From contig NZ_JAUTDO010000010.1 of the NCBI RefSeq assembly GCF_030646165.1, positions 1 through 64,000 on the forward strand: a DNA stretch of 64,000 bases. The letters run 5' to 3'. This document shows, piece by piece, positions 5,888 through 57,546 of the stretch. Numbering within the stretch: position 1 is the first letter of the stretch; every line of letters starts with the position of its first letter. This DNA is from Conexibacter sp. CPCC 206217 (GTDB lineage Bacteria; Actinomycetota; Thermoleophilia; Solirubrobacterales; Solirubrobacteraceae). Made by a program: the position numbers and the translations under genes. The notes below the pieces were generated by a model. That model searched no databases. It was not told where the DNA came from and saw only the letters and a program-made list of their open reading frames with translations.

Positions 5888-8053
5888 GTGCTGCTGGTAG
5901 GCATCGACATCGGCGGCACCTTCACCGACCTCGCGCTCTACGACTCCGATGCGGGTCGCGTGGCGGTGCACAAGGTCCGCTCCACCCCCGACGACCCCGG
6001 CCGCGCGCTCGTGACCGGGATCGTCGAGCTGTGCGCCGCCGCCGGCGTCGCGCCCGGCGACCTCGACGGCGTGCTGCACGGCACGACCGTCGCGACCAAC
6101 GCGGTGCTTGAGCACCGCGGCGCGCGCACCGGAATGGTCACGACGGAGGGCGTGCGCGACGTCGTGCACATCGGCCGCCATCAGCGCCCAGAGCCGTACT
6201 CGGTGATGCTCGACATCCCGTGGCAGGCGACGCCGTTCGTGCGCCGCGCCCACCGCCTCACCGTCCCGGAGCGGATCGCGTCGAGCGGCGAGGTGATCGT
6301 GGCGCTCGACGAGGAGCGCGTGCGCAGCGTCGCCCGCGCGCTCGGCGAGGCCGGCGTCGAGGCGGTCGCGATCTGCTTCCTCTTCTCCTACGTCGACGCC
6401 GCGCACGAACAGCGCGCGGCGGAGATCGTGCGCGAGGAGCTGCCCGCGGCATTCGTCACGACCTCGGCCGACGTCTCGCCGCAGTTCCGCGAGTTCGAGC
6501 GCTTCACGACGGCGGCGATGAACGCCTTCGTCGGGCCCGGCACGGGCAGATACCTGGAGCGCCTGACCGCCGGTCTGGAGCGCGAGGGCGTCGGCGCCGA
6601 CCTGCTCGTGATGCGCTCCAACGGTGGCGTCGCGAGCGTCGCCGAGGCCGCCGCGCGGCCCGTCACGCTGATGCTCTCCGGCCCCGCCGCCGGCGTGCTC
6701 GGCGCGCGCTGGGCGGCCGGTCTGGCCGGGCGCGAGCGGCTGATCACGTTCGACATGGGCGGCACCAGCGCCGACATCGGGATCGTGACCGAGGACGGCG
6801 TCGCGGAGGCGTCCGCGCGCGACACCGAGATCGCCGGCTTCCCGCTCCTGGTGCCGATGTTCGACATCCAGACGATCGGCGCCGGCGGCGGCTCGATCGC
6901 ACGCCTGGACGAGGCCGGCGGCTTCCGGGTCGGTCCGCGCAGCGCGGGCGCCGTGCCCGGCCCGGCCTGCTACGGCTTCGGCGGCACCGAGGCGACGATC
7001 TCCGACGCGCACCTCGTGCTCGGACGGCTGGACCCGGAGCGCTTCCTCGGCGGCGACATGGCGCTCGACACGGCCGCCGCGGAGGCGGTCGTCGACCGGC
7101 TCGCCGGCCAGCTCGGCCTCGACCGGCTCGCGGCGGCCGAGGGGATCCTGCGGCTGGCGAACGCCAGCATGGCGCAGACGATCCGCTCGATCACCGTCGA
7201 GCGGGGCCACGACCCGCGCGACTTCAGCCTCGTCGCGTTCGGCGGCGCCGGCCCGCTGCACGCGGCCGAGCTGGCCGACGCGATCGGCATCCGCGAGGTC
7301 GTCGTGCCGCCGCATCCCGGCATCACCTCGGCCGCCGGCCTGCTCACCTCCGATCTGCGCTACGACCACATGCGCACCGTCTTCATGACCGAGGGCGCGA
7401 TCGACGGCGACGCGATCAACCGGCAGTTCGAGGAGCTGGCCGGCGAGCTGCTCGCACGGCTGCTGCGCGACGGAGCCGACGCGGCCGACGTGACGATCGA
7501 GCGGGCGCTCGACTGCCGCTACGCGGGCCAGGGCTACGAGCTGCGGATCCCCGCCGGCAAGGGCTTCACGCCGCAGGTGCTGGAGGCGTTCCACGCCGCC
7601 CACAGAGCGGAGTACGGCCACCACTTCGCTGATCCGATCGAGCTCGTCAACCTGCGCGTGACGGTCTCGGGACCGCGCCCGAAGCTGGAGCGCGTCGAGA
7701 TCGGCAGCGGGACGCTGGAGCAGGCGCAGATCGGCGAGCAGACGGGCGTCTGGCGCGTCGGCGACGAGCTGGTGGCGCGCCCGACGCGCCAGCTGCTGCG
7801 CGAGCGGCTGCCGCTGGAGGAGCCGATCGCCGGTCCCGCGATCGTCTTCCAGCGCGACACGACCGTCGTCGTGCCGCCCGGCTGGAGCGCGACCGCCACG
7901 CCCGGCGGCGCGCTGCTGCTGAACGCGACGGGCGTGCAGCACGGAGCCGCCGCCGACGATGACGTGACCGCCGACGGCGCGACCGCCACCGACCAGACCG
8001 CCGACCGCGCGACCGCCACCGACCAGACCGAGACGAGAGGAGCGCTCGCATGA
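5888..8053 (+). CDS. hyuA: Hydantoinase/oxoprolinase A subunit (HyuA)
   Basis: A 721-residue cytoplasmic ATP-dependent ring-opening amidohydrolase subunit. The actin-like ATPase motifs are visible: VGIDIGGTFTDLALYD at the N-terminus (Hydant_A_N) and ITFDMGGTSADIGIV near residue 290, then GAGGGSIARLDEAGGFRVGP. GTG at 5888 is chosen because AAGGAG (5874-5879) lies 8 bases before it and the protein starts right at the IDIGGT strand. The family acts on hydantoins, 5-oxoproline or N-methylhydantoin with subunit B; substrate is not predictable. The last 30 residues are an Asp/Thr/Ala-rich tail encoded by a 30-base tandem duplication. The stop overlaps hyuB as ATGA. Confidence 0.9.
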   Translation: MLLVGIDIGGTFTDLALYDSDAGRVAVHKVRSTPDDPGRALVTGIVELCAAAGVAPGDLDGVLHGTTVATNAVLEHRGARTGMVTTEGVRDVVHIGRHQRPEPYSVMLDIPWQATPFVRRAHRLTVPERIASSGEVIVALDEERVRSVARALGEAGVEAVAICFLFSYVDAAHEQRAAEIVREELPAAFVTTSADVSPQFREFERFTTAAMNAFVGPGTGRYLERLTAGLEREGVGADLLVMRSNGGVASVAEAAARPVTLMLSGPAAGVLGARWAAGLAGRERLITFDMGGTSADIGIVTEDGVAEASARDTEIAGFPLLVPMFDIQTIGAGGGSIARLDEAGGFRVGPRSAGAVPGPACYGFGGTEATISDAHLVLGRLDPERFLGGDMALDTAAAEAVVDRLAGQLGLDRLAAAEGILRLANASMAQTIRSITVERGHDPRDFSLVAFGGAGPLHAAELADAIGIREVVVPPHPGITSAAGLLTSDLRYDHMRTVFMTEGAIDGDAINRQFEELAGELLARLLRDGADAADVTIERALDCRYAGQGYELRIPAGKGFTPQVLEAFHAAHRAEYGHHFADPIELVNLRVTVSGPRPKLERVEIGSGTLEQAQIGEQTGVWRVGDELVARPTRQLLRERLPLEEPIAGPAIVFQRDTTVVVPPGWSATATPGGALLLNATGVQHGAAADDDVTADGATATDQTADRATATDQTETRGALA
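7971..8030 (+). repeat. Tandem 30-base duplication in the hyuA tail
   Basis: Bases 7971-8000 and 8001-8030 are identical except for one base and encode ADGATATDQT and ADRATATDQT. The repeat lies beyond the conserved HyuA fold in a low-complexity C-terminal extension, so copy-number change there would be tolerated. Confidence 0.85.
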
Positions 8054-9741
8054 GCACGCTCGACCGACCGCGCGTCGACCCCGTCACCGCCGCGGTGATC
8101 GGCGGCGCGCTGACCTCGACCGCCGTCGAGATGGGCTACCGCCTCGCGCGCGCCTCCTACTCGTCGATCATCCGCGAGTCGGAGGACTTCGGCTGCGCGC
8201 TGCTGGACCACGAGCGCCGCCAGCTGTGCGAGTCGACCCAGTCGACGCCGCTGCAGTCCGGCCCGATCCCCGGCTACGTGAGAGGGATCGATCGCCGCTT
8301 CGCGGAGCTCGGCGACAGCTGGAGACCCGGCGACGTCGTGATCCACAACCACCCCTACTACGGCGCATCCCACCAGCCCGACGTCGGCTTCGTCGTGCCG
8401 GTCTTCCTCGGCGAGCAGCTGATCGGCTTCTCGGTCACGACCGCGCACCACCTCGACCTCGGCGCGCTGACGCCCGGCAGCTGCGGGATCGTCGACGCCT
8501 CCGACGCGTTCGCCGAAGGGCTGCTGCTGAACGCCGTCAAGGTCGAGGAGGAGGGACGCCGCAACGAGAGCGCGTGGCGGATCGTCGCCGACAACACGCG
8601 CCTGCCCCAGCTCGTCGTCGGGGACATGGAGGCGCAGGTCGCCGCCGCCAAGCTCGGCGCGACGCGGATGCTGGAGCTGGTGCAGCGCTATGGCCTGGAG
8701 ACGGTCCAGGCCGCCTCCGAGCAGCTGATGGACCACTCCGAGGCGAGCCTGCGTCAGCAGATCGAGCGGATCCCCGACGGCCGCTACGCGGCGGAGGGGC
8801 GGATGGACGGCTTCCTCGACCACCCCGACCCGGCCTATCGCGACCTGCTCGTGAAGGTCGCGATCACGGTCTCCGGCTCGGACCTGCACGTCGATCTGAC
8901 CGGCACCGCCGACCAGGTCGACCTGCCGATCAACATGCCGTTCAAGGGCACCGTCGACATCGCGATCTGCCTGACGCTGCGGGCGATCCTGCTCGACAGC
9001 GTGCGGCACGACGCGGTCGCCAGCAACCAGGGGCTGTTCCGCCCGATCACGATCGAGGCGCCGCTCGGCTCGCTTGCCAACCCGCGCTTCCCGGCGCCGA
9101 CGATCGCGCGCTTCTGCCCCGGCAACGTGATCGCCGACACGGTCATGCGCGCGCTCGCGCCGGTGCTGCCCGACCAGGTCGCGGCCGGGGTCGGCAACCT
9201 CAAGGTCGTCGCGTACTCCGGCGCGAGCGAACAGGGCTCGTGGGTCTACATGGACATCGTCGAGGGCTCCTACGGCGGCCGCAGCGGCAAGGACGGCCTC
9301 GACGCCGTCGACACGCTCTACGCGAACACGCGCAACAACCCGATCGAGGACATCGAGTCGCACTACCCGCTGCGCGTGCGGCGCTACGAGCTGGTCGACG
9401 AGGGCGCGGGCGCCGGTCGCTGGCGCGGCGGCCTCGGCTCCGTGCGAGAGATCGAGTTCCTCGCCGACGGCGGCTTCTCGCTGGAGGGCGACGGCAACCT
9501 CGTGCCACCGCCGGGCCTGTTCGGCGGTCACGAGGGCAGAGCGGGCTCGGTCACGCTCAACCCCGGCACCGCGCGCGAGCAGGCGCTGCCGTCCAAGACG
9601 CCGTACCGCAAGGCCCGGGCCGGCGACGTGCTGCGGCTGGTGGCGCCCTGCGGCGGCGGCTACGGCGACCCGGCGCAGCGCGACCCGGCGGCTGCCGCGC
9701 GCGACAGCGAGGACGGGATCGCGACGGTGGCGTCGCGATGA
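8050..9741 (+). CDS. hyuB: Hydantoinase/oxoprolinase B subunit (HyuB)
   Basis: A 563-residue partner of HyuA. Recognisable family segments are DPVTAAVIGGALTSTAVEMG near the N-terminus, ESEDFGCALLDHERRQLCES, PGDVVIHNHPYYGASHQPDV and, at the C-terminal end, GAGAGRWRGGLGSVREIEFL. Together with subunit A it opens cyclic amide rings in an ATP-dependent reaction. It starts at an ATGA overlap with hyuA and ends at an ATGA overlap with the amidase, so the three enzymes are made from one message with coupled translation. Confidence 0.92.
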   Translation: MSTLDRPRVDPVTAAVIGGALTSTAVEMGYRLARASYSSIIRESEDFGCALLDHERRQLCESTQSTPLQSGPIPGYVRGIDRRFAELGDSWRPGDVVIHNHPYYGASHQPDVGFVVPVFLGEQLIGFSVTTAHHLDLGALTPGSCGIVDASDAFAEGLLLNAVKVEEEGRRNESAWRIVADNTRLPQLVVGDMEAQVAAAKLGATRMLELVQRYGLETVQAASEQLMDHSEASLRQQIERIPDGRYAAEGRMDGFLDHPDPAYRDLLVKVAITVSGSDLHVDLTGTADQVDLPINMPFKGTVDIAICLTLRAILLDSVRHDAVASNQGLFRPITIEAPLGSLANPRFPAPTIARFCPGNVIADTVMRALAPVLPDQVAAGVGNLKVVAYSGASEQGSWVYMDIVEGSYGGRSGKDGLDAVDTLYANTRNNPIEDIESHYPLRVRRYELVDEGAGAGRWRGGLGSVREIEFLADGGFSLEGDGNLVPPPGLFGGHEGRAGSVTLNPGTAREQALPSKTPYRKARAGDVLRLVAPCGGGYGDPAQRDPAAAARDSEDGIATVASR

Positions 9742-10982
9742 GCGGCGTGTCGATCAGCCCGCAGACGCTCGCCCGCACGCTCGGGCAGGACCTCGAGGAG
9801 GTCGCGCAGATCGGCGCGACCGGCCGCGGTGGGATCTCGCGCTTCGCCTGGACCGACGAGCTGGCGCAGGCATACGCCTGGGTCGCCGGCGAGCTGGAGG
9901 CGCTCGGGCTCGTCGCCGGGGTCGACCAGGCCGGCAACCTGATCGCCAGATGGGAGGTCGACGGCGGCGACGAGGGCGCCGTGATGGCCGCCTCGCATCT
10001 CGACACCGTCCCCAACGGCGGTCGCTTCGACGGCGTGCTCGGCGTGCTCGGCGCACTGGAGGCGGTGCGGATCCTGCGGCGCAGGGGCTTCGAGCCGGCG
10101 CGGCCGATCTGGATCGGCTCGTTCATGGACGAGGAGGGCACGCGCTTCGGCGCTGCGCTGTTCGGCAGCCGCGCCTTCGCCGGCCACGACGTCAGCGCAA
10201 GCCTCGCGGCGACCGACGCCGAGGGCGTCACCGTCAGCGAGGCGATCGCGGCGCGGGGGATGGACCCCGCGCGCGTCGGCGAGGCGTTCGTCGCGCCGTC
10301 GCTGTCGGCCTACCTGGAGCTGCACGTCGAGCAGGGGCCGGTGCTCGACAGCGCCGGCGAGCGGCTTGGCATCGTCGAGTCGATCACCGGCGTGCTCGGC
10401 TTCCACGTGATCGTCAGAGGCGAGGCCAACCACGCCGGCGCGACCCCGACCGACGCGCGCAGAGACGCGCTCGTCGGCGCCTCGAAGATGGTGCTGGCGC
10501 TGCGCGAGCGGGCGCGCGAGCACAGCGAGCTGCGCGCGACCGTCGGGCGCATCTCGACCTCGCCGGGCGCGATCACGGTCGTCCCGGGCGAGTGCCGCTT
10601 CACCGTCGATCTGCGTCCGTCGCAGCCGGAGGTCGTCGCGCCGACGATCGCCTGGCTGCGCGCGATGGTCGCCGAGGTCGCGGCCTCCGAGGGGCTGGAG
10701 GCGGAGGTCGTCAGCGACTACGAGCTGGCGCCGACGATGATGGATCCGCGCGTCGTCGCGGCGCTCGCCGCGGCCGCCGCCGACGAGGGCGTCGAGCCGG
10801 TGCGGATGTGGAGCGGCGCCGGACACGACGCGATGGTGATCGCGCCGCATGCGCCGACCGGGATGGTGTTCGTGCCGAGCGTCGGCGGGATCAGCCACTC
10901 GCCGCACGAATGGACCGAGACGGCCGACTGCGAGCTGGGCGCGCGCGTGCTCGCGGGCGCGATCGAGCGGCTCGCGGGGTGA
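9738..10982 (+). CDS. M20-family N-carbamoyl-L-amino-acid hydrolase / allantoate amidohydrolase
   Basis: A 414-residue metal-dependent amidase. Metal and active-site blocks are in order: ASHLDTVPNGGRFDG (His87, Asp98), GSFMDEEGTRFG (Glu132/133), LELHVEQGPVL, GEANHAGATPTDARRD and WSGAGHDAMV, with ISHSPHEWT near the end. Proteins of this family remove a carbamoyl or ureido group as CO2 and ammonia. After HyuAB opens a hydantoin ring, the resulting N-carbamoyl amino acid is the expected substrate, which completes conversion to an amino acid. Allantoate or beta-ureidopropionate are alternatives that sequence alone does not exclude. Confidence 0.88.
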   Translation: MSGVSISPQTLARTLGQDLEEVAQIGATGRGGISRFAWTDELAQAYAWVAGELEALGLVAGVDQAGNLIARWEVDGGDEGAVMAASHLDTVPNGGRFDGVLGVLGALEAVRILRRRGFEPARPIWIGSFMDEEGTRFGAALFGSRAFAGHDVSASLAATDAEGVTVSEAIAARGMDPARVGEAFVAPSLSAYLELHVEQGPVLDSAGERLGIVESITGVLGFHVIVRGEANHAGATPTDARRDALVGASKMVLALRERAREHSELRATVGRISTSPGAITVVPGECRFTVDLRPSQPEVVAPTIAWLRAMVAEVAASEGLEAEVVSDYELAPTMMDPRVVAALAAAAADEGVEPVRMWSGAGHDAMVIAPHAPTGMVFVPSVGGISHSPHEWTETADCELGARVLAGAIERLAG

Positions 10983-11032
10983 GCGGCGCGCGGGGACTGC
11001 GGCGGTGTGCGCACGCGCCAGCGGCGGCGACG

Positions 11033-11038
11033 TAAGGT
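11033..11038 (+). promoter_or_regulatory. Leaderless -10 box (TAAGGT) of the GntR/UTRA gene
   Basis: TAAGGT lies 6 bases before ATG 11045 with no ribosome-binding site between them. Transcription would begin at or next to the ATG, giving the regulator its own promoter inside the operon tail. Confidence 0.5.
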
Positions 11039-11044
11039 GGTGCG

Positions 11045-11788
11045 ATGAGCTCCGTCGACAAGCAGTCCCCGCTGCCGGCGTACTTCCAGGTGGCGCAGGA
11101 TCTGCGCCGCCGGATCGCGCAGGGCGAGTGGGGAACCGGCGACAGGATCGCGCCGGAGCTCTCGCTCGCCGGGCACTACGGCGTCAGCCGCGTCACGGTC
11201 CGGCAGGCGCTGGCGGAGCTGGCGAAGGACGACCTCGTCGAGCGCAAGCGCGGCAGCGGCACGTACGTGCGTCCGCAGCAGCGGCCGATCGTCTACGACC
11301 TCAACCTGACGCTCGGCGCCTACGCCGCGAGGATCAGGGAGCTGGGCTTCTCCAACCGCGCCGAGATCATCGAGTCGGGCCTGCTCACGCCGCCGCCCGA
11401 GCACGTGCGCGCGCCGTTGGAGCTGGCGCCGGACGGCCAGGTCGCCTACCTGCTGCGGCGGATCTTCATCAACGACCAGCCGGCGGCGATGTACCGCTCG
11501 TGGTTCGACGCCGCCGTGGTGCCGGGGATCGAGCGCTGCCCGGGCGTCGAGGGCTCGTTGTCGGACACGCTCGAGCGCGAGTACGGCTTCGTGCCGGTGC
11601 GTAGCGAGCTGTACCTGGAGGTCGTGCGCTCCACGCGCGAGGAGGCGCTGCTCGTCGACGCCGTCAGCGACGTGCCGCTGCTGGTCGTCACCAGCACGAG
11701 CTACCTCGCCGACGGCCGCCCGCTCGAGCACGGCCAGACGGCATGGCTCGGCGACCGCGTGCGGTTCCACGTGACGTCGGAGGCGTAG
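11045..11788 (+). CDS. GntR-family (HutC/UTRA) transcriptional regulator
   Basis: A 247-residue regulator with an N-terminal winged helix (LPAYFQVAQDLRRRIAQGEW, GVSRVTVRQALAELAKDDLV, RKRGSGTYV) and a C-terminal UTRA effector domain (VAYLLRRIFINDQPAAMYRS, PLLVVTSTSYLADGRPLEHG). HutC-type regulators sense small catabolites and control neighbouring uptake and degradation genes. It directly follows the amidase (62 bases) and is the best candidate regulator of the 2016-10982 operon. It belongs to a different GntR subfamily from the FCD regulator at 836. Confidence 0.9.
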   Translation: MSSVDKQSPLPAYFQVAQDLRRRIAQGEWGTGDRIAPELSLAGHYGVSRVTVRQALAELAKDDLVERKRGSGTYVRPQQRPIVYDLNLTLGAYAARIRELGFSNRAEIIESGLLTPPPEHVRAPLELAPDGQVAYLLRRIFINDQPAAMYRSWFDAAVVPGIERCPGVEGSLSDTLEREYGFVPVRSELYLEVVRSTREEALLVDAVSDVPLLVVTSTSYLADGRPLEHGQTAWLGDRVRFHVTSEA

Positions 11789-13295: not shown

Positions 13296-14345
13296 TCAAG
13301 CGGCGATCGAGCGCCGCAGCGCGACGAAGCCGATCGCTCCGCCGGCCAGCGGGAGCCAGAAGAGGATCACGCGGTAGATCAGCACGGCCGCTGCGGTGGC
13401 GGCGGCGGGGGCGCCGAAGACGATCAGCATCCCGATCAGGCCGCCGTCGATCCCGCCCATCCCGCCGGGGATCGGCAGCAGCCCGCCGAGCTGGCCGACG
13501 AGATAGCCGAGCAGGATCACCCAGATGCTGACGTCGGCGCCGAAGGCGTGGAACGCGGCCCACAGGACGGCGTTGTCGAACAGCCAGTAGCCGAGTGCGC
13601 CGGCGAGCACGAGCGGGTTGCGGGCCCGCAGGATCCCGATCGCCTCGGCTGTGCCGGTCACGAGGGTGCGGCGAGCGATCGTGAGGGCGGCGCGTACGCG
13701 GATCGCGCCCGAGCGGGTGACGGCGCGCTGCGCGCCGGGCGGAACCGCGCGTGCCGCCTCGCCACCCGCGCCGATCCGCGGCAGCAGCAGGACGACCGCG
13801 ATCGCAACGCCCGCCAGTGCGGCGGGGAAGGCCGTCAGCCACAGCGAGACGGGCGGCCCGACGAGGCCGAGCGCCATCGCCGTGCCGATCAGCGCGACCG
13901 CGACGAAGTTCACCGAGCCCTTGATCAGGAAGAACGCGACCGAGCGGCGTGCGACGCGCTCGGGCTCCATGCCGTCGTGGACGAGCGCCCAGCTTGCGAG
14001 CGCGAGGCCGGCGGCGCCGCTGGCGGGGACGATCGAGCCCATTCCGAGCGCCGACCAGCCGATCCGGCTCGCCGCGCCCCAGGAGCGCTCGGCGCAGAAG
14101 ATCGGCTTGAACATCAGCACGTAGGCGACGCACGACAGCAGTTGCAGCGCGACCGCGGCGGCGACCCAGCCGAGGCTCGCGTCGCCGAGCAGGCGCCGCA
14201 CGTCGCCGAGCCCCGGCGTCAGCGCCGCGACGAGCACCAGCGCGCCGATCAGTGCCGCGACCTGCGCCGCGCCGCCGAGCAGTCGGCGCGTCTGGAACGC
14301 GCGCGGCGGCGCGTGGTCGGTCGCGTGCTGCTGAAGCGTGCTCAT
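13296..14345 (-). CDS. YbhN/LPG-synthase transmembrane-region family membrane protein
   Basis: A 349-residue integral membrane protein with about eight hydrophobic segments. The family hallmark near the C-terminus is present (LLGYLVGQLGGLLPIPGGMG, GGLIGMLIVFGAP, AVLIYRVILFWLPLAGGAIG). This is the membrane half of lysylphosphatidylglycerol synthases (PF03706), also found alone in proteins thought to flip or remodel lipids; the aminoacyl-transfer domain is absent. It lies downstream of an acyl-reductase-like SDR on the same strand, 153 bases away, in a lipid-related neighbourhood. The role in lipid handling is inference. Confidence 0.8.
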   Translation of the reverse strand: MSTLQQHATDHAPPRAFQTRRLLGGAAQVAALIGALVLVAALTPGLGDVRRLLGDASLGWVAAAVALQLLSCVAYVLMFKPIFCAERSWGAASRIGWSALGMGSIVPASGAAGLALASWALVHDGMEPERVARRSVAFFLIKGSVNFVAVALIGTAMALGLVGPPVSLWLTAFPAALAGVAIAVVLLLPRIGAGGEAARAVPPGAQRAVTRSGAIRVRAALTIARRTLVTGTAEAIGILRARNPLVLAGALGYWLFDNAVLWAAFHAFGADVSIWVILLGYLVGQLGGLLPIPGGMGGIDGGLIGMLIVFGAPAAATAAAVLIYRVILFWLPLAGGAIGFVALRRSIAA

Positions 14346-14498: not shown

Positions 14499-15566
14499 TC
14501 AGGCCGCCGCGGACGCAGCCCCCACCGGGCTCGACCGCAGCACGCGCGTGCGGCCCCATCTGGCGGCCGCCGCGTGGTCGAGCAGGAGCGGGACGAGCCG
14601 CTCGATCGGGACGGGGCGGACGCCGAGCTGGCCGGCGCGGGCGAACTCGAAGCGCGCCCAGACGTCGACGTACGGGGCGTAGACGCCGATCTGGTCGGCC
14701 GCGGTCGGCACGCACTCCATCATCGGGCGCCCGGCGTGCTCCAGCGACAGCCGCGCGAACTGCTCCATCGTCGGCGCCAGCTCGCCGCTGACGACCTGCA
14801 CCACGCCCGTCTGCGCGGGATCGTCGAGCAGACCCGCGACGACCTCCACGACGTGGTCGACCGGCACGAGGTCGAGGATCGCACCGGCCGGCGCGGGGAC
14901 GACGTCGAGCACGCCGCTGACGAGCGCCCGCAGCGGCGGGTAGACGACGTTGAAGGAGCTGGTCCAGCCCGTCCGCGTGTCGCCGACGACGATGCTGGGG
15001 CGCACGATCGCGGCGCCGTCGAGGCGTTCCACGACGCGCTCGGCGCGGTGCTTGGTCTTCTCGTAGGTGTTGCGGAACGCGGGCGTCGGCGCCGGGCCGG
15101 TCTCCCGCGCGAGCCCGTCCGCGCGGCCGTGCACGTACGCCGTCGAGACGTGCACGAGGCGGCCGGCGGCGCCGCGCTCGCGGGCCCGCTCGGCGAGCGC
15201 GACGATCCGCTCGGTGCCGGCGACGTTGATCGCGTGCGCGTCGTCGAGCGACAGGTCGAAGCGGATCGAGGCGGCGCAGTGGACGACCGCGGCGGCGCGC
15301 TCGGCGAGCGCGTCGTAGGCGTCCGGCGCCAGCCCGAGCCCGTCGCGCTCGACGTCGGCCGCCAGCACCTGCACGCCGGCGACGACGGTCGCGTCGCCCC
15401 AGGTCGCCTCGGCCAGCTGCTCCAGACGCCGGCGCGCGTCCGCGTCGTCTCTCGCGCGCACGAGCGCCGCGACGCGGTCGCCGCGTGCGAGCAGGCGCTC
15501 CAGCACGAGCGAGCCGACGAAGCCGGTGGCGCCGGTCAGCACCGTCACGTCATCTTCACGAGCCAT
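14499..15566 (-). CDS. Extended SDR, fatty-acyl reductase-like (NAD_binding_4)
   Basis: A 355-residue protein with the nucleotide-binding TGATGFVG at residues 11-18, HCAASIRFD, NVAGTERIV, VSTAYVHG and a catalytic YEKTK, then RPSIVVGDTRTGWTSSFNVV. The order and wording of these blocks match the male-sterility/thioester-reductase domain of fatty acyl-CoA reductases and carboxylic acid reductases. The ATG at 15566 gives a protein that begins right before the first strand; a GTG seven codons upstream is possible. GATACT, a fair -10 sequence, ends 6 bases before this ATG. It is divergent from the alkyl-DHAP synthase gene and related to the SDR at 56162. Confidence 0.85.
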   Translation of the reverse strand: MAREDDVTVLTGATGFVGSLVLERLLARGDRVAALVRARDDADARRRLEQLAEATWGDATVVAGVQVLAADVERDGLGLAPDAYDALAERAAAVVHCAASIRFDLSLDDAHAINVAGTERIVALAERARERGAAGRLVHVSTAYVHGRADGLARETGPAPTPAFRNTYEKTKHRAERVVERLDGAAIVRPSIVVGDTRTGWTSSFNVVYPPLRALVSGVLDVVPAPAGAILDLVPVDHVVEVVAGLLDDPAQTGVVQVVSGELAPTMEQFARLSLEHAGRPMMECVPTAADQIGVYAPYVDVWARFEFARAGQLGVRPVPIERLVPLLLDHAAAARWGRTRVLRSSPVGAASAAA

Positions 15567-15694
15567 GCGCTCAGTATCGCTGCGCACGGTCGGTCAGCGC
15601 CGCGCGGTCGCATCCCCTAAGGTCGTCCGCCACACGACGCCGGGGTCGACGCGCGGGCGCACGCGCCCGCGCGCCAGCGATACGGAGGACGGAC

Positions 15695-17353
15695 ATGGCA
15701 GCGATGAAGTGGTGGGGCTGGGGCGTGGAGGGCGTGGAGTTCACGCACGAGGACAAGCCCGCGCTCGGACCGTTCATCAAGGAGGTGCTGGGGCTGGACG
15801 TCTCGCGTCCGACGACCGCGCCGCTGCGCTTCGACCAGCTGCAGATCGCCGACCCGACCCTGCCCGACGCCCTGCGCGCCGCGCTCGAGGAGGCCGTCGG
15901 CGCCGAGCACGTCAGCGTCGATCCGCTCGACCGCGTCGTGCACGCGCGCGGCAAGTCGGTCCGCGACCTGATCCGCCAGCGCCGCGGCGACCTGCCGCGC
16001 GTGCCGGACGTCGTCGTGCGCCCCGGCGGCGAGGACGCCGTCACCGCCGTGCTGCAGGCGGCGCTGAAGGTCGACGCCGTCGTGATCCCGTTCGGCGGCG
16101 GCAGCTCGATCTCCGGCTCGCTGGAAGCGCCCGCCGACGAGCAGCGCCCGATCGTCTCCGTCGACCTCGGCCGGCTCGACAAGCTGCTGTCGATCGACGA
16201 GCACGCCCGCCTGGCGACGGTCCAGGCCGGCGTCTTCGGCCCGCACCTGGAGCAGCAGCTCAACGCGCGCGGCTACACGTTCGGCCACTTCCCCGACTCG
16301 TTCACGCACTCGACGCTCGGCGGCTGGATCGCGACGCGCTCCTCCGGCATGCAGTCCGACCGCTACGGCGACATCGCCGACCTGACGCGCGGCCTGCGCG
16401 TCGTGACGCCCAACGGCACGCTCGTCGCGCAGCCGGTCCCGTCGCAGTCGACCGGGCCGAGCGTGCGCGAGATGGTGCTCGGCAGCGAGGGGCGGCTGGG
16501 GATCATCACCGAGGCGACCGTGCACGTGCGGCGGCTGCCGCAGGAGCGCAAGATCCTCGGCTACCTGTTCCCCACGTTCGCCGCGGGCCTCGCGGCGATG
16601 CGCGACGTCGCCGCGAGCGAGTGCTCGGTCTCGGTCACGCGCGTCTCCGACGCGCCCGAGACGATGTTCTCGTTCGCCACGCGCAAGCGCTCGACGCTGC
16701 TGGACAGAGTGCAGTCGAAGGCGCTCCAGACGTTCCTGCAGCGGCGCCTGGGCTTCGAGCTGAGACAGATGTGCCTGTCGTTCATCGGCTACGAGGGGTC
16801 CGCGGGCCACGTCGCGCAGCAGCGCAAGGCGGTCGGCAAGATCGTCAAGCGCCACGGCGGGCTGTGCATCGGCTCCAGCCCCGGCGCGCTGTACGACCAG
16901 AAGAAGTTCGACACGCCCTACATCCGCGACTTCCTGCTGGACCGCGGCGTCCCCGCCGACGTCTCCGAGACGGCGATGCCGTGGAGCAGACTGCAGACCG
17001 TCTATGACGCGGTCAGCGCCGCCGGCCACGGCGCGTTCGCGCAGCTCGGCGTGAGGGGCTACCTGATGTGCCACCTGTCGCACAGCTACCACGGTGGCGC
17101 CTGCCTCTACTTCACGTTCGCGTTCGAGCCGTCGCCGGGCGCCGACATGCTGGTCGAGTACGACGTGGTCAAGTCGGCGATCCAGCAGGCGTTCGTCGAC
17201 AACGGCGCCACGCTGTCGCACCACCACGCCGTCGGCACCGAGCACGCGCGATGGCTGGAGCAGGACATCTCGGCGCCGGGCGTCGCGATGCTGGAGGCGC
17301 TGTTCTCCGGGACCGACCCTGGTCGGAACTTGAACCCCGGAAAGATCGTCTGA
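15695..17353 (+). CDS. Alkyldihydroxyacetonephosphate synthase-like flavoprotein
   Basis: A 552-residue FAD enzyme. It begins MAAMKWWGWG, the usual opening of actinobacterial and animal AGPS proteins. It has the FAD-binding PFGGGSS (132-138), HSTLGGWIATRSSGMQSDRY (205-224), an ACLYFTFAF segment and, near residues 509-511, the His-His-His block (LSHHHAVGTEHARWL) diagnostic of AGPS. The enzyme exchanges the acyl chain of acyl-DHAP for a fatty alcohol and so makes the ether bond of ether lipids. GGAGGA at 15684-15689 supports ATG 15695. The acyltransferase and SDR downstream fit the same pathway. Other FAD-binding oxidases such as lactate dehydrogenases lack the triple-His block. Confidence 0.88.
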   Translation: MAAMKWWGWGVEGVEFTHEDKPALGPFIKEVLGLDVSRPTTAPLRFDQLQIADPTLPDALRAALEEAVGAEHVSVDPLDRVVHARGKSVRDLIRQRRGDLPRVPDVVVRPGGEDAVTAVLQAALKVDAVVIPFGGGSSISGSLEAPADEQRPIVSVDLGRLDKLLSIDEHARLATVQAGVFGPHLEQQLNARGYTFGHFPDSFTHSTLGGWIATRSSGMQSDRYGDIADLTRGLRVVTPNGTLVAQPVPSQSTGPSVREMVLGSEGRLGIITEATVHVRRLPQERKILGYLFPTFAAGLAAMRDVAASECSVSVTRVSDAPETMFSFATRKRSTLLDRVQSKALQTFLQRRLGFELRQMCLSFIGYEGSAGHVAQQRKAVGKIVKRHGGLCIGSSPGALYDQKKFDTPYIRDFLLDRGVPADVSETAMPWSRLQTVYDAVSAAGHGAFAQLGVRGYLMCHLSHSYHGGACLYFTFAFEPSPGADMLVEYDVVKSAIQQAFVDNGATLSHHHAVGTEHARWLEQDISAPGVAMLEALFSGTDPGRNLNPGKIV

Positions 17354-17400
17354 CGCGCGTGCGGGAAACCTTCACGCAGGAGCGGAGTAAGCAACCCCTG

Positions 17401-18291
17401 ATGGCGAACGACGACCGTGCACGAGACCAGGCCTGGGCGCGCAAGCTCCCGGCGCGGGTCGCGCGCGAGGCGATCGTCTGCGGCGTCTTCGACACGATCA
17501 TCCGCTCCTACGCGCGCAAGCGGATCGACGGGCGCGAGCACCTCGACCGGCTCGACGGCCCGGCGATCTTCGTCGCCAACCACTGCAGCCACGTCGACAC
17601 GCCGCTGCTGCTGCGCTCGCTGCCGCGCGCGGTGCGGCGGCGCACCGCCGTCGCCGCCGCGGCCGACTACTTCTACACGAGCAGGCTGCTCGCGGGCGCG
17701 GTCTCGCTGGCCTTCTGCACCGTGCCGCTGGAGCGGCGCGGGGGCGGCAGAGGCGGCTCGACCGCGAGCCTGCAGCCGCTGATCGACGACGGCTGGAGCC
17801 TCGTCGTGTTCGCCGAGGGGACGCGCTCGCGCGACGGCCGCGTCGCGCCGCTGAGAACCGGCGCCGCGATGCTCGCCGCCGCGCACGGCCTGCCGCTCGT
17901 CCCGATCCACATCGCCGGCACGCACGCCGCGATGCCGACCGGGCGCGGCTGGATGGTCAGGCCGGCCGGCGGCCGTCGCTTCGCGAGGCACGAGTTGCGC
18001 GTCTGCTTCGGCGCCCCGATCGAGGTGGGCCCGCGCGACGACCGCTTCGAGGTGATGGAGCGCGTGCGCCAGTTCATGGAGGCGTGCGGAGCGGTGACGA
18101 GCCCGGACCCGAAGCTCGCGGCGCGGCGGGCGGCGGCTGCGGCCGGGTCGGCTGGCGTGGACGAGGCGGCGGCGCCCGTGGCTCCGGCGGCGCCGGGTCC
18201 GACGGCGACGGGTGCGCCGGCGGTGCGAGCCGCGTCGACCGGCGGCGCCGCTGCGCCCGCGCGTGTCGCGGAGAGCCGGTCGCTGCGATGA
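17401..18291 (+). CDS. PlsC-like 1-acylglycerol-phosphate/DHAP acyltransferase
   Basis: A 296-residue acyltransferase with the four family blocks: NHCSHVDTPLL with the HX4D pair His61/Asp66, the CTVPLERRG block, VVFAEGTRSRDG (Glu139), and LPLVPIHIAGTHAAMPTG. It transfers an acyl chain to a glycerol-phosphate or dihydroxyacetone-phosphate hydroxyl at the membrane. The last 55 residues are Ala/Pro/Gly-rich and probably disordered. It starts 47 bases after the AGPS stop and ends in an ATGA overlap with the SDR gene. In an ether-lipid reading it could supply acyl-DHAP to AGPS or fill the sn-2 position; sequence does not decide. Confidence 0.85.
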   Translation: MANDDRARDQAWARKLPARVAREAIVCGVFDTIIRSYARKRIDGREHLDRLDGPAIFVANHCSHVDTPLLLRSLPRAVRRRTAVAAAADYFYTSRLLAGAVSLAFCTVPLERRGGGRGGSTASLQPLIDDGWSLVVFAEGTRSRDGRVAPLRTGAAMLAAAHGLPLVPIHIAGTHAAMPTGRGWMVRPAGGRRFARHELRVCFGAPIEVGPRDDRFEVMERVRQFMEACGAVTSPDPKLAARRAAAAAGSAGVDEAAAPVAPAAPGPTATGAPAVRAASTGGAAAPARVAESRSLR

Positions 18292-19298
18292 GCAGGGTCT
18301 TCCTGACGGGCGGCGGCGGCTTCATCGGCGGCGCGCTGGCGACGGCGCTGCGCGAGCGCGGTGACGAGGTCGTCGGGCTCGCGCGCACCGACGCGGCGGC
18401 GCAGGCGCTGAGCGCGCGCGGCGCGCAGGTCGTGCGCGGCGACGTGCTCGACGCCGACGCGCTCGCCCGCGCGCTCGCCGGCTGCGACCTCGCCTACCAC
18501 GTCGCGGGCGTCAACTCGCACTGTCCGAAGGATCCGGCGCGGCTGATGCGCGTGAACGTCGAGGGGACCGAGCAGGTCGTGCGCGCGGCGGCGCTCGCGG
18601 GCGTCAGGCGGGTCGTCTTCACCTCCTCGGCGGCGTCGATCGGCGAGGCCGAGGGCACCGTCGGGACGGAGCAGTCCCCGCATCGCGGCTCCTACCTGTC
18701 GCTCTACGACCAGTCCAAGCACGACGCCGAGCGCGTCGCGTTCGCGGCCGGTGTCGAGACCGGCGTGGAGGTCGTCGCGCTGAACCCCTCGTCGGTCCAG
18801 GGCCCGCCACGCAAGGGCGGCAACGGCGCGATCATCATCGCGTTCCTGAACGGCAGGCTGCGCGCGTTCGTGGACACGTACGTCAGCGTCGTCGACGTGC
18901 AGGACGTCGTCGCCGCGCACCTGCTGGCGGCCGAGCGCGGCACGCCCGGTCAGCGCTACATCCTCAACGGCGCGACGATCCCCTCAGCCGACGCGCTGGC
19001 GATCGTCTCCGACCTGACGGGCCTGAGACAGCGCGTCCCGATGGTCCCGCCCGCGCTCGCCCGCGGCGCCGCGACGCTGGTCGAGCGCGTCCTGAGGCTG
19101 CGTGGCAAGACCTCCCCGATCTGCCGCGCCCGCGTCGACACGATCCTCCACGGCCATCGCTACGACGGCTCCCGCGCCACCCGCGAACTGGGCCTCGCCT
19201 ACACCCCGGTCGCCGACACCTTCCGCCGCACGATCGAGTGGGCCGTGGCGGAGGGGCTCGTCACGCGGGAGCTGCCAGCACGACGCAGGCGCGGCTGA
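18288..19298 (+). CDS. NAD(P)-dependent extended SDR (epimerase/ketoreductase-like)
   Basis: A 336-residue protein with TGGGGFIGG at residues 7-15, DVLDADALARALAGCD, YHVAG, a Ser-rich FTSSAAS and the catalytic pair Tyr140/Lys144 (YDQSK). The fold is the dihydroflavonol-reductase/3-beta-HSD type. The coupled ATGA start with the acyltransferase and the AGPS further upstream suggest it reduces a lipid intermediate such as alkyl/acyl-DHAP, a job done by an SDR in animals. That assignment is inference from context; sugar epimerase or sterol-like substrates remain possible. Confidence 0.8.
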   Translation: MSRVFLTGGGGFIGGALATALRERGDEVVGLARTDAAAQALSARGAQVVRGDVLDADALARALAGCDLAYHVAGVNSHCPKDPARLMRVNVEGTEQVVRAAALAGVRRVVFTSSAASIGEAEGTVGTEQSPHRGSYLSLYDQSKHDAERVAFAAGVETGVEVVALNPSSVQGPPRKGGNGAIIIAFLNGRLRAFVDTYVSVVDVQDVVAAHLLAAERGTPGQRYILNGATIPSADALAIVSDLTGLRQRVPMVPPALARGAATLVERVLRLRGKTSPICRARVDTILHGHRYDGSRATRELGLAYTPVADTFRRTIEWAVAEGLVTRELPARRRRG

Positions 19299-54878: not shown

Positions 54879-56165
54879 TCAGACCCGCCGCAGCGAGCGG
54901 TACTCGTCCAGCGAGGTCGCGTCGCGCTCCTTCGCGACGTCGACCGGCGCGACGTCGAAGTCGTGCGCGCCGTCCGCGCACCAGAAGGCCGGATGTCTGC
55001 GCAGCCAGCGCCGCGCGTCGCGGCGCCCGGCGGCGATCAGCGCGTCGACGTAGACGCGGTCGAAGAAGAGGAACGAGAGCAGGTCTCCGCCCGCGTCGGT
55101 GCGGCCGCGCAGCAGCCGCCCGAGCAGCAGCAGGTCCGGGTGACGGGCCGCCTTCAGGCCGCCGTAACGGGCCTGGAACGTTCGCATCGCGAGCTGGCCC
55201 AGCTCGCGTCTGCGGCGCGGCGTGACCATCGCGTACGCGATCTTGCGGTACGGGCGCCTGCCGCGCGCCTCGCGGTAGGCGCGCGCGGACGGGTTCGTGC
55301 CGGCGCGGTGGTCCTCGACGAAGAACGAGTTGATCGCGACGAGCCGCTGCATGTCGGCCGCGACCTGGTCGACGAGCAGGCCGTCGAGCATGTTCGCGAT
55401 CACGTCGACGAGATGCGGCGGCGGCTCGTCCGGCGCGATCGGCGGCGCGGCGAGCGGCTCGAAGCCGATCACGATCACATGGTCGGCGCCCAGTTCGACG
55501 GCCGGCTTGATCGGCGAGTTGAGCCGTGTCGCGCCGTCGGTGTAGTAGCCCTGGGCGCTCGGCGGGTCGTTGATCTCGACGGCGGGGAAGACGAGCGGGA
55601 TCGCCGCGGAGGCGCGCACGTGCTCGTCGGCGAGGCGCACCGGCACGAACGGCAGCTCGTCGCTTCTGGGCAGCTGGCGCGGCGTCGCCGTCTCGACGAA
55701 GCCGACCGGCCGGCCCGTCGTCAGCTGCGTCGCGACGACGCAGACGGCGTCGAGCAGGCCGCCGTCGACGTTGCGGTGCAGCGCGTCCCAGTCCATATGG
55801 CGGCCGAGGTAGCGCCGCAGCGGGTGCGGATCCAGCAGCGAGCCGCGCCGCACGCCCGGGATCGAGAGCGCGTCGCCGGCCAGCCGCGCGAGGTTGAACG
55901 GCAGCCGCGGCGACAGCAGCGGCGCGATCACGTCGCTGCGCTCCAGCCCGCGCCAGCGCTCGATCGCCAGCTCCACCTGCGCCGCCACCGGCAGGTGCGC
56001 GAGCGACCCCAGCAGCGCCGCGTTGATCGCGCCGACGCTGGTGCCGCACAGCAGCGTCACCTCCTCGCCGCGCCGCTCCAGCTCCGGCAGCAGGATCGAC
56101 AACGCACCGACTTCGTACGCGCCTCGCGCGCCGCCACCCGGCAGCACGAGCGCGATCCGTCTCAT
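54879..56165 (-). CDS. Patatin-like phospholipase
   Basis: A 428-residue serine lipid hydrolase. Oxyanion hole GGGARGAYEVG (10-20), nucleophile Ser43 in LLCGTSVGAINAALLG and catalytic Asp210 in YYTDGATRLNSP form the Ser-Asp dyad. The C-terminal 150 residues are helical and variable. It hydrolyses acyl esters of phospholipids or neutral lipids. The ATG overlaps the stop of the upstream acyl-reductase-like SDR (ATGA at 56162-56165), so the two proteins are made together and may act on the same acyl chains. Confidence 0.9.
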   Translation of the reverse strand: MRRIALVLPGGGARGAYEVGALSILLPELERRGEEVTLLCGTSVGAINAALLGSLAHLPVAAQVELAIERWRGLERSDVIAPLLSPRLPFNLARLAGDALSIPGVRRGSLLDPHPLRRYLGRHMDWDALHRNVDGGLLDAVCVVATQLTTGRPVGFVETATPRQLPRSDELPFVPVRLADEHVRASAAIPLVFPAVEINDPPSAQGYYTDGATRLNSPIKPAVELGADHVIVIGFEPLAAPPIAPDEPPPHLVDVIANMLDGLLVDQVAADMQRLVAINSFFVEDHRAGTNPSARAYREARGRRPYRKIAYAMVTPRRRRELGQLAMRTFQARYGGLKAARHPDLLLLGRLLRGRTDAGGDLLSFLFFDRVYVDALIAAGRRDARRWLRRHPAFWCADGAHDFDVAPVDVAKERDATSLDEYRSLRRV

Positions 56166-57445
56166 GCCTGTGCGCGCACCTGCCCTGCGTGACGGCCGGC
56201 AGCGGCGCTCGCGTGCGCGGCGGCGGGAAGCGCGACCGGCATCGCCAGCCGCGGCTGGCGGCGGCGCGCCTGTGCGGCGGCCTCCACGCGCGTCAGCGGC
56301 CGGCGGCCCCACTGCGCGGTCACGGCGTAGCGGACGAGTCTGTCGAAGTAGCCCGGCAACTGCGTCACCTGTATCCCTCTCTGCACGAGCGCTTCCTGCG
56401 CCCGCGTCGTGTCGTAGCGCGCCCGCAGCGCGAAGTACGGATAGAAGACCTGGCCGCGCTCCAGCCAGCGACGGCGCGCGCCCGTGCTGCGGCGCAGCAG
56501 CGCCTGGTGCACGGTGCGCTGGTAGAGCCACGGCTGCAGCGCGAGCGGCCGCCGGCGCTCGAAGGCGGCGGCGGAGAGGTCGATCAGCTCGCCGACGCTG
56601 CTCGCCTGCGGCCCGGCCGCGAGGCTGTAGGTGAGGCCGGGCTCGGCGTCGATCCCGCCGCCCGCGAGCGCGTGGATCGCGTCGGCGACGTAGTCGACCG
56701 GCACGACGTCGACCGGCGAGGCGCGCCGGGCCGGCATCACCGGCGTCGTCGCGCCGCGCGCGAACGCCTTCAGCGGCGCGTAGATGACGTTGAACGCGGG
56801 CGTCCAGCCGGAGTCGCGCTCGCCGACGACGATGCTGGGGCGGAAGACCTGCAGCGGCAGCACGTCGGCGTGCTCGCGCACGAGCTTCTCGGCCTCCCAC
56901 TTGGTCCGCTCGTAGGTGTTGCGGTGGCCCTGGCCGAGGTCGAGGTCGTCCTCGCCGAAGACGCCGCGGTGGGTGCCGGCGACGTACGCCGTCGAGACGT
57001 GCGAGAAGCGCCGCAGCCCGCCGCGCCGCTGCGCCAGCAGCGCCAGGTCGAGCATGTTGCGCGTGCCCTCGACGTTGATCGCGCGCGCCTCCTCCAGCGG
57101 CAGCGTGAAGTCGACGGAGGCGGCCGAGTGGACGATCTCGGTGACGCGCTCGGCGAGCTGCTCGCGCCGCGCGTCGGTCAGGCCGAGCCCGGGCGATGCG
57201 ACGTCGCCGCGGACCGCGACGAGGCGGTCGTCGTAGCGCTCGGCGTCGGGCAGCACCTCGTGCGCCGCGGCGCGCAGCCGGGCCGCCGCCGAGGCGTCGT
57301 CGTCCGCGCGCACGAGCGCGTAGACGGTGCGCTCGCCGCGTTCCAGGTAGCGCGCCAGCAGCTCCATCCCGAGGAAGCCGGTCGCTCCCGTGAGGAGGAC
57401 GGGTCCGTCGGCGAGGCCGTGGTCGGAAGGCTGCGCAGCGAGCAT
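56162..57445 (-). CDS. Extended SDR, fatty-acyl reductase-like (NAD_binding_4)
   Basis: A 427-residue protein with TGATGFLG (19-26), YALVRADDDASAAARLRAAA, IVHSAASVDFTLPLEEARAI, NVEGTRNMLDLAL, VSTAYVAGTHRG and catalytic NTYERTKWEAEKLV, then FRPSIVVGERDSGWTPAFNV. These match the reductase domain of fatty acyl-CoA reductases. A C-terminal part of about 130 residues (RRPLALQPWLYQRTVHQALL onward) resembles the helical sterile domain. It is a paralogue of the SDR at 14499. It is coupled to the patatin gene; together they could release an acyl chain and reduce it, in either order. Confidence 0.85.
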   Translation of the reverse strand: MLAAQPSDHGLADGPVLLTGATGFLGMELLARYLERGERTVYALVRADDDASAAARLRAAAHEVLPDAERYDDRLVAVRGDVASPGLGLTDARREQLAERVTEIVHSAASVDFTLPLEEARAINVEGTRNMLDLALLAQRRGGLRRFSHVSTAYVAGTHRGVFGEDDLDLGQGHRNTYERTKWEAEKLVREHADVLPLQVFRPSIVVGERDSGWTPAFNVIYAPLKAFARGATTPVMPARRASPVDVVPVDYVADAIHALAGGGIDAEPGLTYSLAAGPQASSVGELIDLSAAAFERRRPLALQPWLYQRTVHQALLRRSTGARRRWLERGQVFYPYFALRARYDTTRAQEALVQRGIQVTQLPGYFDRLVRYAVTAQWGRRPLTRVEAAAQARRRQPRLAMPVALPAAAHASAAAGRHAGQVRAQA

Positions 57446-57546
57446 GTCAAGCAGGTTGCCGGTCTTTCGCCGCACCCGGTATCGCCAGGGGGACGAAACC
57501 TCGCTGGCCGCCTTGGCCGCTGGTCGAAGAAGCTGTGTGACGGCGG

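What the first reader, a model, noticed from the sequence alone, without database searches (positions are those of the whole stretch)
14499..19298. Compact bacterial ether-lipid biosynthesis module
Seen: an acyl-reductase-like SDR is divergent from an AGPS-type flavoprotein with the diagnostic triple-His block, followed by a PlsC-type acyltransferase and an extended SDR joined by an ATGA overlap. Known: animals make ether lipids with a fatty acyl-CoA reductase, a DHAP acyltransferase, AGPS and an acyl/alkyl-DHAP reductase. The four families occur here side by side. Inference: the organism makes alkyl ether phospholipids by an aerobic, eukaryote-like route. The YbhN-like membrane protein beyond the SDR could remodel or flip the product.
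Basis: partly seen in the sequence, partly recalled or inferred. Interest (0 to 1): 0.7.

Follow-up and report, generated by a model that had tools for sequence, protein, structure and literature searches.

The report
Bacterial ether-lipid gene cluster (Conexibacter)
A soil actinobacterium carries a compact set of genes that looks like the animal route for making ether lipids; the two core genes stay side by side in many bacterial phyla, while the helper reductases are swapped for unrelated ones, so a "eukaryotic" lipid pathway is probably widespread in bacteria.

Summary
Window 14499-19298 encodes a NAD_binding_4 reductase, divergent from an AGPS flavoprotein, a PlsC acyltransferase and an extended SDR overlapping it by ATGA. 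The genome is a close relative of Conexibacter woesei, which has the same four genes. The AGPS is genuine: in an 88-protein tree it lies with Dictyostelium and guinea-pig AGPS (100/100), apart from the AGPS-like paralogues of its own genome and of mycobacteria. The triple-His motif is not diagnostic, because those paralogues have it too. The real evidence is conserved neighbourhood: 49 of 54 bacterial members of that clade (Actinomycetota, Verrucomicrobiota, Acidobacteriota, Planctomycetota and others) lie near PlsC and/or a fatty acyl-CoA reductase, against 0 of 32 outside it. Gene order varies and helper enzymes are replaced: FAR, HMGR-type FcrA, classical or extended SDR. In 61 relatives the same PlsC occurs in all 16 genomes with this AGPS and 1 of 45 without. 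Weaker points: the window's reductase is outside the true FAR clade and linked only in Conexibacter; the SDR is epimerase-like; the YbhN gene is not part of the cluster. The closest described relative is the Myxococcus MXAN_1676-1674 operon. No lipid data exist; the function is inferred.

The parts
14499..15566 (-). NAD_binding_4 reductase, 355 aa; putative fatty acyl-CoA/thioester reductase supplying fatty alcohol (or aldehyde)
   Evidence: PF07993 E 7e-52; GxxGxxG, STAY and YxxxK motifs; linked to AGPS only in three Conexibacter genomes; outside the FAR clade in the tree
15567..15694 (.). 128-bp divergent intergenic region, presumed promoters of both transcription units
   Evidence: gene coordinates; promoters not tested
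15695..17353 (+). AGPS (alkyldihydroxyacetonephosphate synthase), 552 aa
   Evidence: PDB 2uuu Dictyostelium AGPS E 1.2e-112 (37.6% identity), 4bby guinea-pig AGPS E 1.3e-90; clade with both eukaryotic AGPSs at 100/100; equivalents of gpig H300, R419, R515, Y578, H615-617 present
17401..18291 (+). PlsC-family acyltransferase, 296 aa; proposed DHAP 1-O-acyltransferase
   Evidence: PF01553 E 4.8e-20; HX4D and EGTR motifs; AGPS-linked PlsCs group apart from the other PlsCs of the same genomes; in all 16 relatives with this AGPS, 1 of 45 without
18288..19298 (+). extended SDR, 336 aa; proposed alkyl-DHAP (acyl-DHAP) reductase
   Evidence: PF01370 E 4.6e-32, best NCBIfam HpnA 236.7 bits, under its cut-off of 367.65; ATGA overlap with PlsC; ortholog in 9 of 16 relatives with this AGPS, 1 of 45 without
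13296..14345 (-). YbhN/MprF-type membrane protein (PF03706): neighbour, judged NOT part of the module
   Evidence: PF03706 E 1.3e-18; no YbhN match in any orthologous locus, C. woesei included

Best explanation
This is an ether-lipid precursor module that works through dihydroxyacetone phosphate. PlsC most likely acylates DHAP to 1-acyl-DHAP. The NAD_binding_4 reductase most likely reduces a fatty acyl thioester to the fatty alcohol (or to the aldehyde, with another enzyme finishing). AGPS exchanges the acyl chain for the fatty alcohol and gives 1-O-alkyl-DHAP. The extended SDR reduces the ketone to 1-O-alkyl-glycerol-3-phosphate, which then enters normal phospholipid synthesis. Shown here: gene identities, conserved active-site residues, AGPS clade membership, conserved neighbourhood and co-occurrence. 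Inferred: every catalytic step, the substrates of PlsC and of the two reductases, and the presence of ether lipids. Rough likelihoods: AGPS step 0.85, SDR step 0.6, PlsC acting on DHAP rather than on the later alkyl-G3P 0.55, reductase giving the alcohol 0.5.
For: AGPS nearest solved structures are two eukaryotic AGPSs and the clade is split from paralogues at 100/100. 49 of 54 bacterial rows of that clade have PlsC and/or FAR/FcrA within 4.5 kb, against 0 of 32 outside. Different lineages fill the fatty-alcohol step with unrelated enzymes: FAR with NAD_binding_4+Sterile+HAD in Actinomycetota; a PF00368 protein in Verrucomicrobiota, KSB1, Planctomycetota, Calditrichota and, 5 kb away, in one Solirubrobacterales genome. 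The PF00368 proteins carry the substitutions (Ser684 to Glu, Leu862 to Phe/Trp) that PMC11948995 reports for FcrA, an experimentally shown fatty acyl-CoA reductase. Verrucomicrobiota/KSB1 loci read FcrA-PlsC-AGPS-SDR, two of them with a second PlsC after the SDR, which would cover every step. Same set in Myxococcus MXAN_1676-1674, where disrupting AGPS slightly lowered ether lipids (PMC9131029). Co-occurrence in relatives: PlsC 16/16 v 1/45, p 8e-14; SDR 9/16 v 1/45, p 6e-6, not corrected for kinship.
Against: No ether lipids are reported for Conexibacter in the papers found; the C. woesei description lists phosphatidylinositol and ordinary fatty acids. The window reductase lies outside the FAR clade, lacks the Sterile domain, and most other Solirubrobacterales with this AGPS do not have it alongside. 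The SDR is not the classical SDR type of animal acyl/alkyl-DHAP reductase. One relative (G030) has the PlsC and SDR but no AGPS of this clade.
Confidence: 0.75

Rival explanations
1. Ether-lipid module, but with other task sharing: PlsC is the sn-2 acyltransferase that acylates alkyl-G3P, and acyl-DHAP is made by an unlinked acyltransferase.
For: PlsC family members are usually 1-acyl-G3P acyltransferases; nearest NCBIfam hit is TIGR00530 AGP_acyltrn, under its cut-off, and the only PDB hit is a PlsC (5kym).
Against: G000 has two further PlsC-family genes; AGPS-linked PlsCs form their own group while the second PlsC in L064 and L079 groups with the housekeeping ones (moderate support, 87); PlsC rather than a GNPAT-like protein is what stays with AGPS.
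Confidence: 0.3
2. The reductase is unrelated to the AGPS operon (for example wax-ester, aldehyde or polyketide chemistry) and is only a divergent neighbour; AGPS draws fatty alcohol from another source.
For: Linked only in Conexibacter; family paralogues at 41-48% identity sit elsewhere in many relatives with and without this AGPS; outside the FAR clade; closest solved structures are thioester reductases; G000 has three WS/DGAT genes, so wax esters also need fatty alcohol.
Against: Retained in all three Conexibacter genomes in which the divergent pair could be seen; a fatty acyl-CoA reductase occupies this place in many other AGPS loci.
Confidence: 0.4
3. The flavoprotein is not an AGPS but a D-2-hydroxyacid (lactate/glycolate-type) oxidase.
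For: Shares FAD_binding_4/FAD-oxidase_C with GlcD; TIGR00387 GlcD hit, 118 bits against a cut-off of 568.
Against: AGPS structures match at E 1e-112 and 1e-90, lactate/glycolate enzymes at E 1e-19 or worse; tree places it with eukaryotic AGPS; all AGPS catalytic positions checked are kept.
Confidence: 0.03

Closest known systems
Myxococcus xanthus MXAN_1676-1674 operon (PMC9131029)
   Different: In Myxococcus the reductase and acyltransferase are one fused protein and all genes are in one operon; here they are separate and the reductase is divergent. Myxococcus sequences could not be compared directly.
Myxococcus xanthus elb cluster / ElbD (PMC9131029, PMC11948995)
   Same: FAR-like, acyltransferase and epimerase-type SDR (ElbE) parts in bacterial ether-lipid synthesis
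   Different: ElbD is multidomain with acyl-CoA ligase and ACP domains; the elb cluster contains no AGPS
Animal peroxisomal ether-lipid pathway (FAR1, GNPAT, AGPS, PexRAP)
   Same: AGPS is homologous and in the same clade; same four reactions proposed
   Different: PlsC-type instead of GNPAT; extended instead of classical SDR; reductase without the FAR C-terminal domain; no CarF/PEDS1 (PF10520) match in the genome, though the control searches did not ring either
FcrA-PlsC-AGPS-SDR clusters of Verrucomicrobiota, KSB1, Calditrichota (L057, L059, L062-L064, L079; this work)
   Same: PlsC and AGPS next to each other with a fatty acyl-CoA reductase and an SDR
   Different: HMG-CoA-reductase-family reductase and classical SDR in place of NAD_binding_4 and extended SDR
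AGPS-like FAD proteins of mycobacteria and the two paralogues of this genome
   Same: 35-40% identity, same domains, same triple-His block
   Different: Separate clade, no PlsC or FAR neighbours

Membership tests
AGPS (EC 2.5.1.26) | FAD_binding_4 plus FAD-oxidase_C architecture | tested here: met
   PF01565 E 4.5e-34, PF02913 E 1.3e-31
AGPS (EC 2.5.1.26) | Catalytic positions (gpig H300, R419, R515, Y578, H615-617; choice of sites from general knowledge) | tested here: met
   All present, but also in the paralogues, so necessary rather than diagnostic
AGPS (EC 2.5.1.26) | Groups with characterised AGPSs apart from paralogues | tested here: met
   56-row clade with both eukaryotic AGPSs at 100/100
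AGPS (EC 2.5.1.26) | Exchange of acyl for alkyl on acyl-DHAP | not testable with these tools
   needs an enzyme assay
Fatty acyl-CoA reductase (FAR) | NAD_binding_4 domain with GxxGxxG and YxxxK | tested here: met
   PF07993 E 7e-52; GATGFVG, YEKTK
Fatty acyl-CoA reductase (FAR) | C-terminal Sterile/FAR_C domain | tested here: not met
   No PF03015 match in the window protein; weak matches (32.9-36.9 bits, cut-off 35.4) in the FARs linked to AGPS in other Actinomycetota
Fatty acyl-CoA reductase (FAR) | Groups with characterised FAR | tested here: not met
   7eoz FAR and AGPS-linked FARs form an 18-row group at 99 that excludes it; quick tree, reference is a fragment
GNPAT (DHAP acyltransferase) | GNPAT/PlsB-type sequence | tested here: not met
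   PlsC type: TIGR00530 nearest, PDB 5kym PlsC
GNPAT (DHAP acyltransferase) | Acyl transfer to DHAP | not testable with these tools
   needs an enzyme assay
PexRAP-type acyl/alkyl-DHAP reductase | Classical SDR (adh_short) | tested here: not met
   Extended SDR, Epimerase/3Beta_HSD; adh_short under cut-off. Classical SDRs hold this place in many other AGPS clusters
MXAN_1676-1674-type operon | AGPS, FAR-like, acyltransferase and epimerase-type SDR together | tested here: met
   gene content against the published description
MXAN_1676-1674-type operon | FAR-acyltransferase fusion | tested here: not met
   two separate genes on opposite strands
MXAN_1676-1674-type operon | Orthology of the proteins | not tested
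   no Myxococcus locus was reached

The most novel reading that the evidence does not exclude
An aerobic, DHAP-based ether-lipid pathway built on an AGPS-PlsC core is widespread in bacteria (Actinomycetota, Verrucomicrobiota, Acidobacteriota, Planctomycetota, KSB1, Calditrichota and more). A dedicated PlsC subfamily does the job of GNPAT, and the fatty-alcohol and keto-reduction steps are filled by interchangeable unrelated enzymes, among them HMG-CoA-reductase-like FcrA.
Probability: 0.55. Interest if true: 0.7.

Novelty: new variant of a known kind. Interest (0 to 1): 0.55.

Why it matters
Ether lipids mark archaea, animals and some mostly anaerobic bacteria, and how aerobic bacteria make them is largely open; AGPS homologues are already being used to predict ether-lipid producers in metagenomes (PMC11868695). 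This work shows which AGPS-like proteins deserve that reading (one clade, with PlsC and an acyl reductase beside it) and which do not (mycobacterial-type paralogues with the same triple-His motif). It also gives a concrete role for FcrA outside wax esters and a culturable test organism, C. woesei.

Tried and rejected
Triple-His block as the AGPS test: rejected, paralogues have it. YbhN as part of the module: rejected, not conserved. Assigning the reductase as a canonical FAR: rejected on the tree. Lactate/glycolate oxidase: rejected. A tree with GlcD-type outgroups had end branches over 8 and was replaced by one without them. CarF/PEDS1 search is uninformative because no control rang. Literature searches for ether lipids in Thermoleophilia, or alkyl ethers with Solirubrobacter, found nothing; the library lacks most subscription papers. 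Myxococcus sequences could not be reached, so the match to MXAN_1676-1674 rests on the published description. One alignment call failed on strand errors and was redone. Structure prediction was not run: solved AGPS homologues exist, and folds would not settle the substrates of the reductases.

Full report
OBSERVATION. The four genes are real and at the stated place: NAD_binding_4 reductase 14499-15566 (-), AGPS 15695-17353 (+), PlsC 17401-18291 (+), extended SDR 18288-19298 (+), the last two overlapping as ATGA. The same arrangement at 77-86% identity is in congener G003, whose single contig of 6,359,369 bp has the published length of the Conexibacter woesei genome, and, split over two contigs, in G002.

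AGPS IDENTITY. By sequence the nearest solved structures are Dictyostelium AGPS (E 1.2e-112) and guinea-pig AGPS (E 1.3e-90); lactate and glycolate enzymes follow at E 1e-19 or worse. Dictyostelium AGPS is closer to the window protein (374 bits) than to guinea-pig AGPS (301 bits), and the window protein scores higher with it than with either paralogue in its own genome (295 and 242 bits). A careful tree of 88 proteins splits at 100/100 into a clade with both eukaryotic AGPSs and the window protein, and a clade with the mycobacterial-type proteins and both own paralogues.

NEIGHBOURHOOD. Loci came from 61 relatives and a scan of 84,980 species genomes led by Dictyostelium AGPS. Neighbours were scored with profiles and checked with Pfam. 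In the AGPS clade 49 of 54 bacterial rows have PlsC and/or a fatty acyl-CoA reductase within 4.5 kb; outside it 0 of 32. Several arrangements occur: AGPS-PlsC-extended SDR in Solirubrobacterales; PlsC divergent from AGPS in others; reductase divergent from classical SDR-PlsC-AGPS in Microbacteriaceae, Kocuria and Phytoactinopolyspora; FcrA-PlsC-AGPS-classical SDR in Verrucomicrobiota, KSB1 and Calditrichota. In L064 and L079 a second PlsC follows the SDR, which would cover both acylations of the whole route. The scan was chosen by similarity to AGPS and related rows are not independent, so the p-values are only a guide.

REPLACED PARTS. The fatty-alcohol position is filled by unrelated enzymes. 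In other Actinomycetota it is NAD_binding_4 + Sterile + HAD. In Verrucomicrobiota and others it is a PF00368 (HMG-CoA reductase family) protein. [quoted passage not shown] That paper noted FcrA near a PlsC-like gene in Coxiella and nine genes from an AGPS in 'Ca. Promineifilum'; the FcrA-PlsC-AGPS-SDR cluster described here goes beyond that. Replacement of one enzyme by a non-homologous one of the same activity beside AGPS-PlsC is the best evidence that the cluster supplies fatty alcohol to AGPS.

CO-OCCURRENCE. Among 61 relatives the close PlsC (47% identity or more) is in all 16 genomes with this AGPS and in 1 of 45 without. The extended SDR is in 9 of 16 and 1 of 45. AGPS-linked PlsCs group across phyla apart from the other PlsCs of G000, G003 and G034 (support 87, so moderate), which fits a dedicated DHAP acyltransferase but does not prove it.

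WEAK POINTS. The window reductase is in the right superfamily but outside the clade of the solved FAR 7eoz and the AGPS-linked FARs; paralogues at 41-48% identity are common in the family, with and without AGPS, so its role is the least certain. The extended SDR's best curated model is HpnA 'sugar epimerase', under its cut-off; the published Myxococcus operon has an epimerase-type SDR at the same place. YbhN is a bystander. No ether lipid is on record for Conexibacter in what could be searched.

KNOWN RELATIVES. The closest described system is MXAN_1676-1674 of Myxococcus xanthus: AGPS, a FAR1-acyltransferase fusion and an epimerase-type SDR; AGPS disruption lowered ether lipids slightly (PMC9131029). 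The window is an unfused actinobacterial version. AGPS homologues in Actinobacteria and other phyla were reported from Black Sea metagenomes (PMC11868695).

VERDICT. A genuine ether-lipid precursor module is the best reading (0.75). It is a new variant of a known kind; the wider pattern of a conserved AGPS-PlsC core with interchangeable reductases is the more interesting result.

Noticed in passing
window 56165-58285 (-): A second NAD_binding_4 protein (707 aa) in the same window; matches PRK07201 below its cut-off (192.6 of 549 bits), with homologues at about 80% in C. woesei; another candidate acyl reductase.
   Followed up: partly
L057, L059, L060, L062, L063, L064, L079 (next to AGPS); L065 about 2 kb and L043 about 5 kb from AGPS: HMG-CoA-reductase-family proteins with FcrA-type residues near AGPS, in most cases in the order FcrA-PlsC-AGPS-SDR; suggests that FcrA serves ether-lipid synthesis.
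   Followed up: yes
G030 (L174, L175): A relative with the AGPS-type PlsC and extended SDR but no AGPS of this clade, though its assembly is a single contig; loss of AGPS or another use of the two enzymes.
   Followed up: partly
G000 C24:322602-324158 and C10:36498-37892; L107-L136: AGPS-like paralogues with the triple-His block, including the mycobacterial ones, form a separate clade without ether-lipid neighbours; calling them AGPS may be wrong.
   Followed up: partly
L054, L055: In two Solirubrobacterales the paralogue lies a few kb from a wax ester synthase/DGAT-cluster gene (PF03007 shown for L054) and an NAD synthase-cluster gene.
   Followed up: no
window 5888-11788 (+): Two-gene hydantoinase-like set with an M20-type amidase reading frame and a GntR/UTRA regulator; a catabolic operon unrelated to the finding (the hydantoinase and amidase labels were made by eye from the translations).
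   Followed up: no
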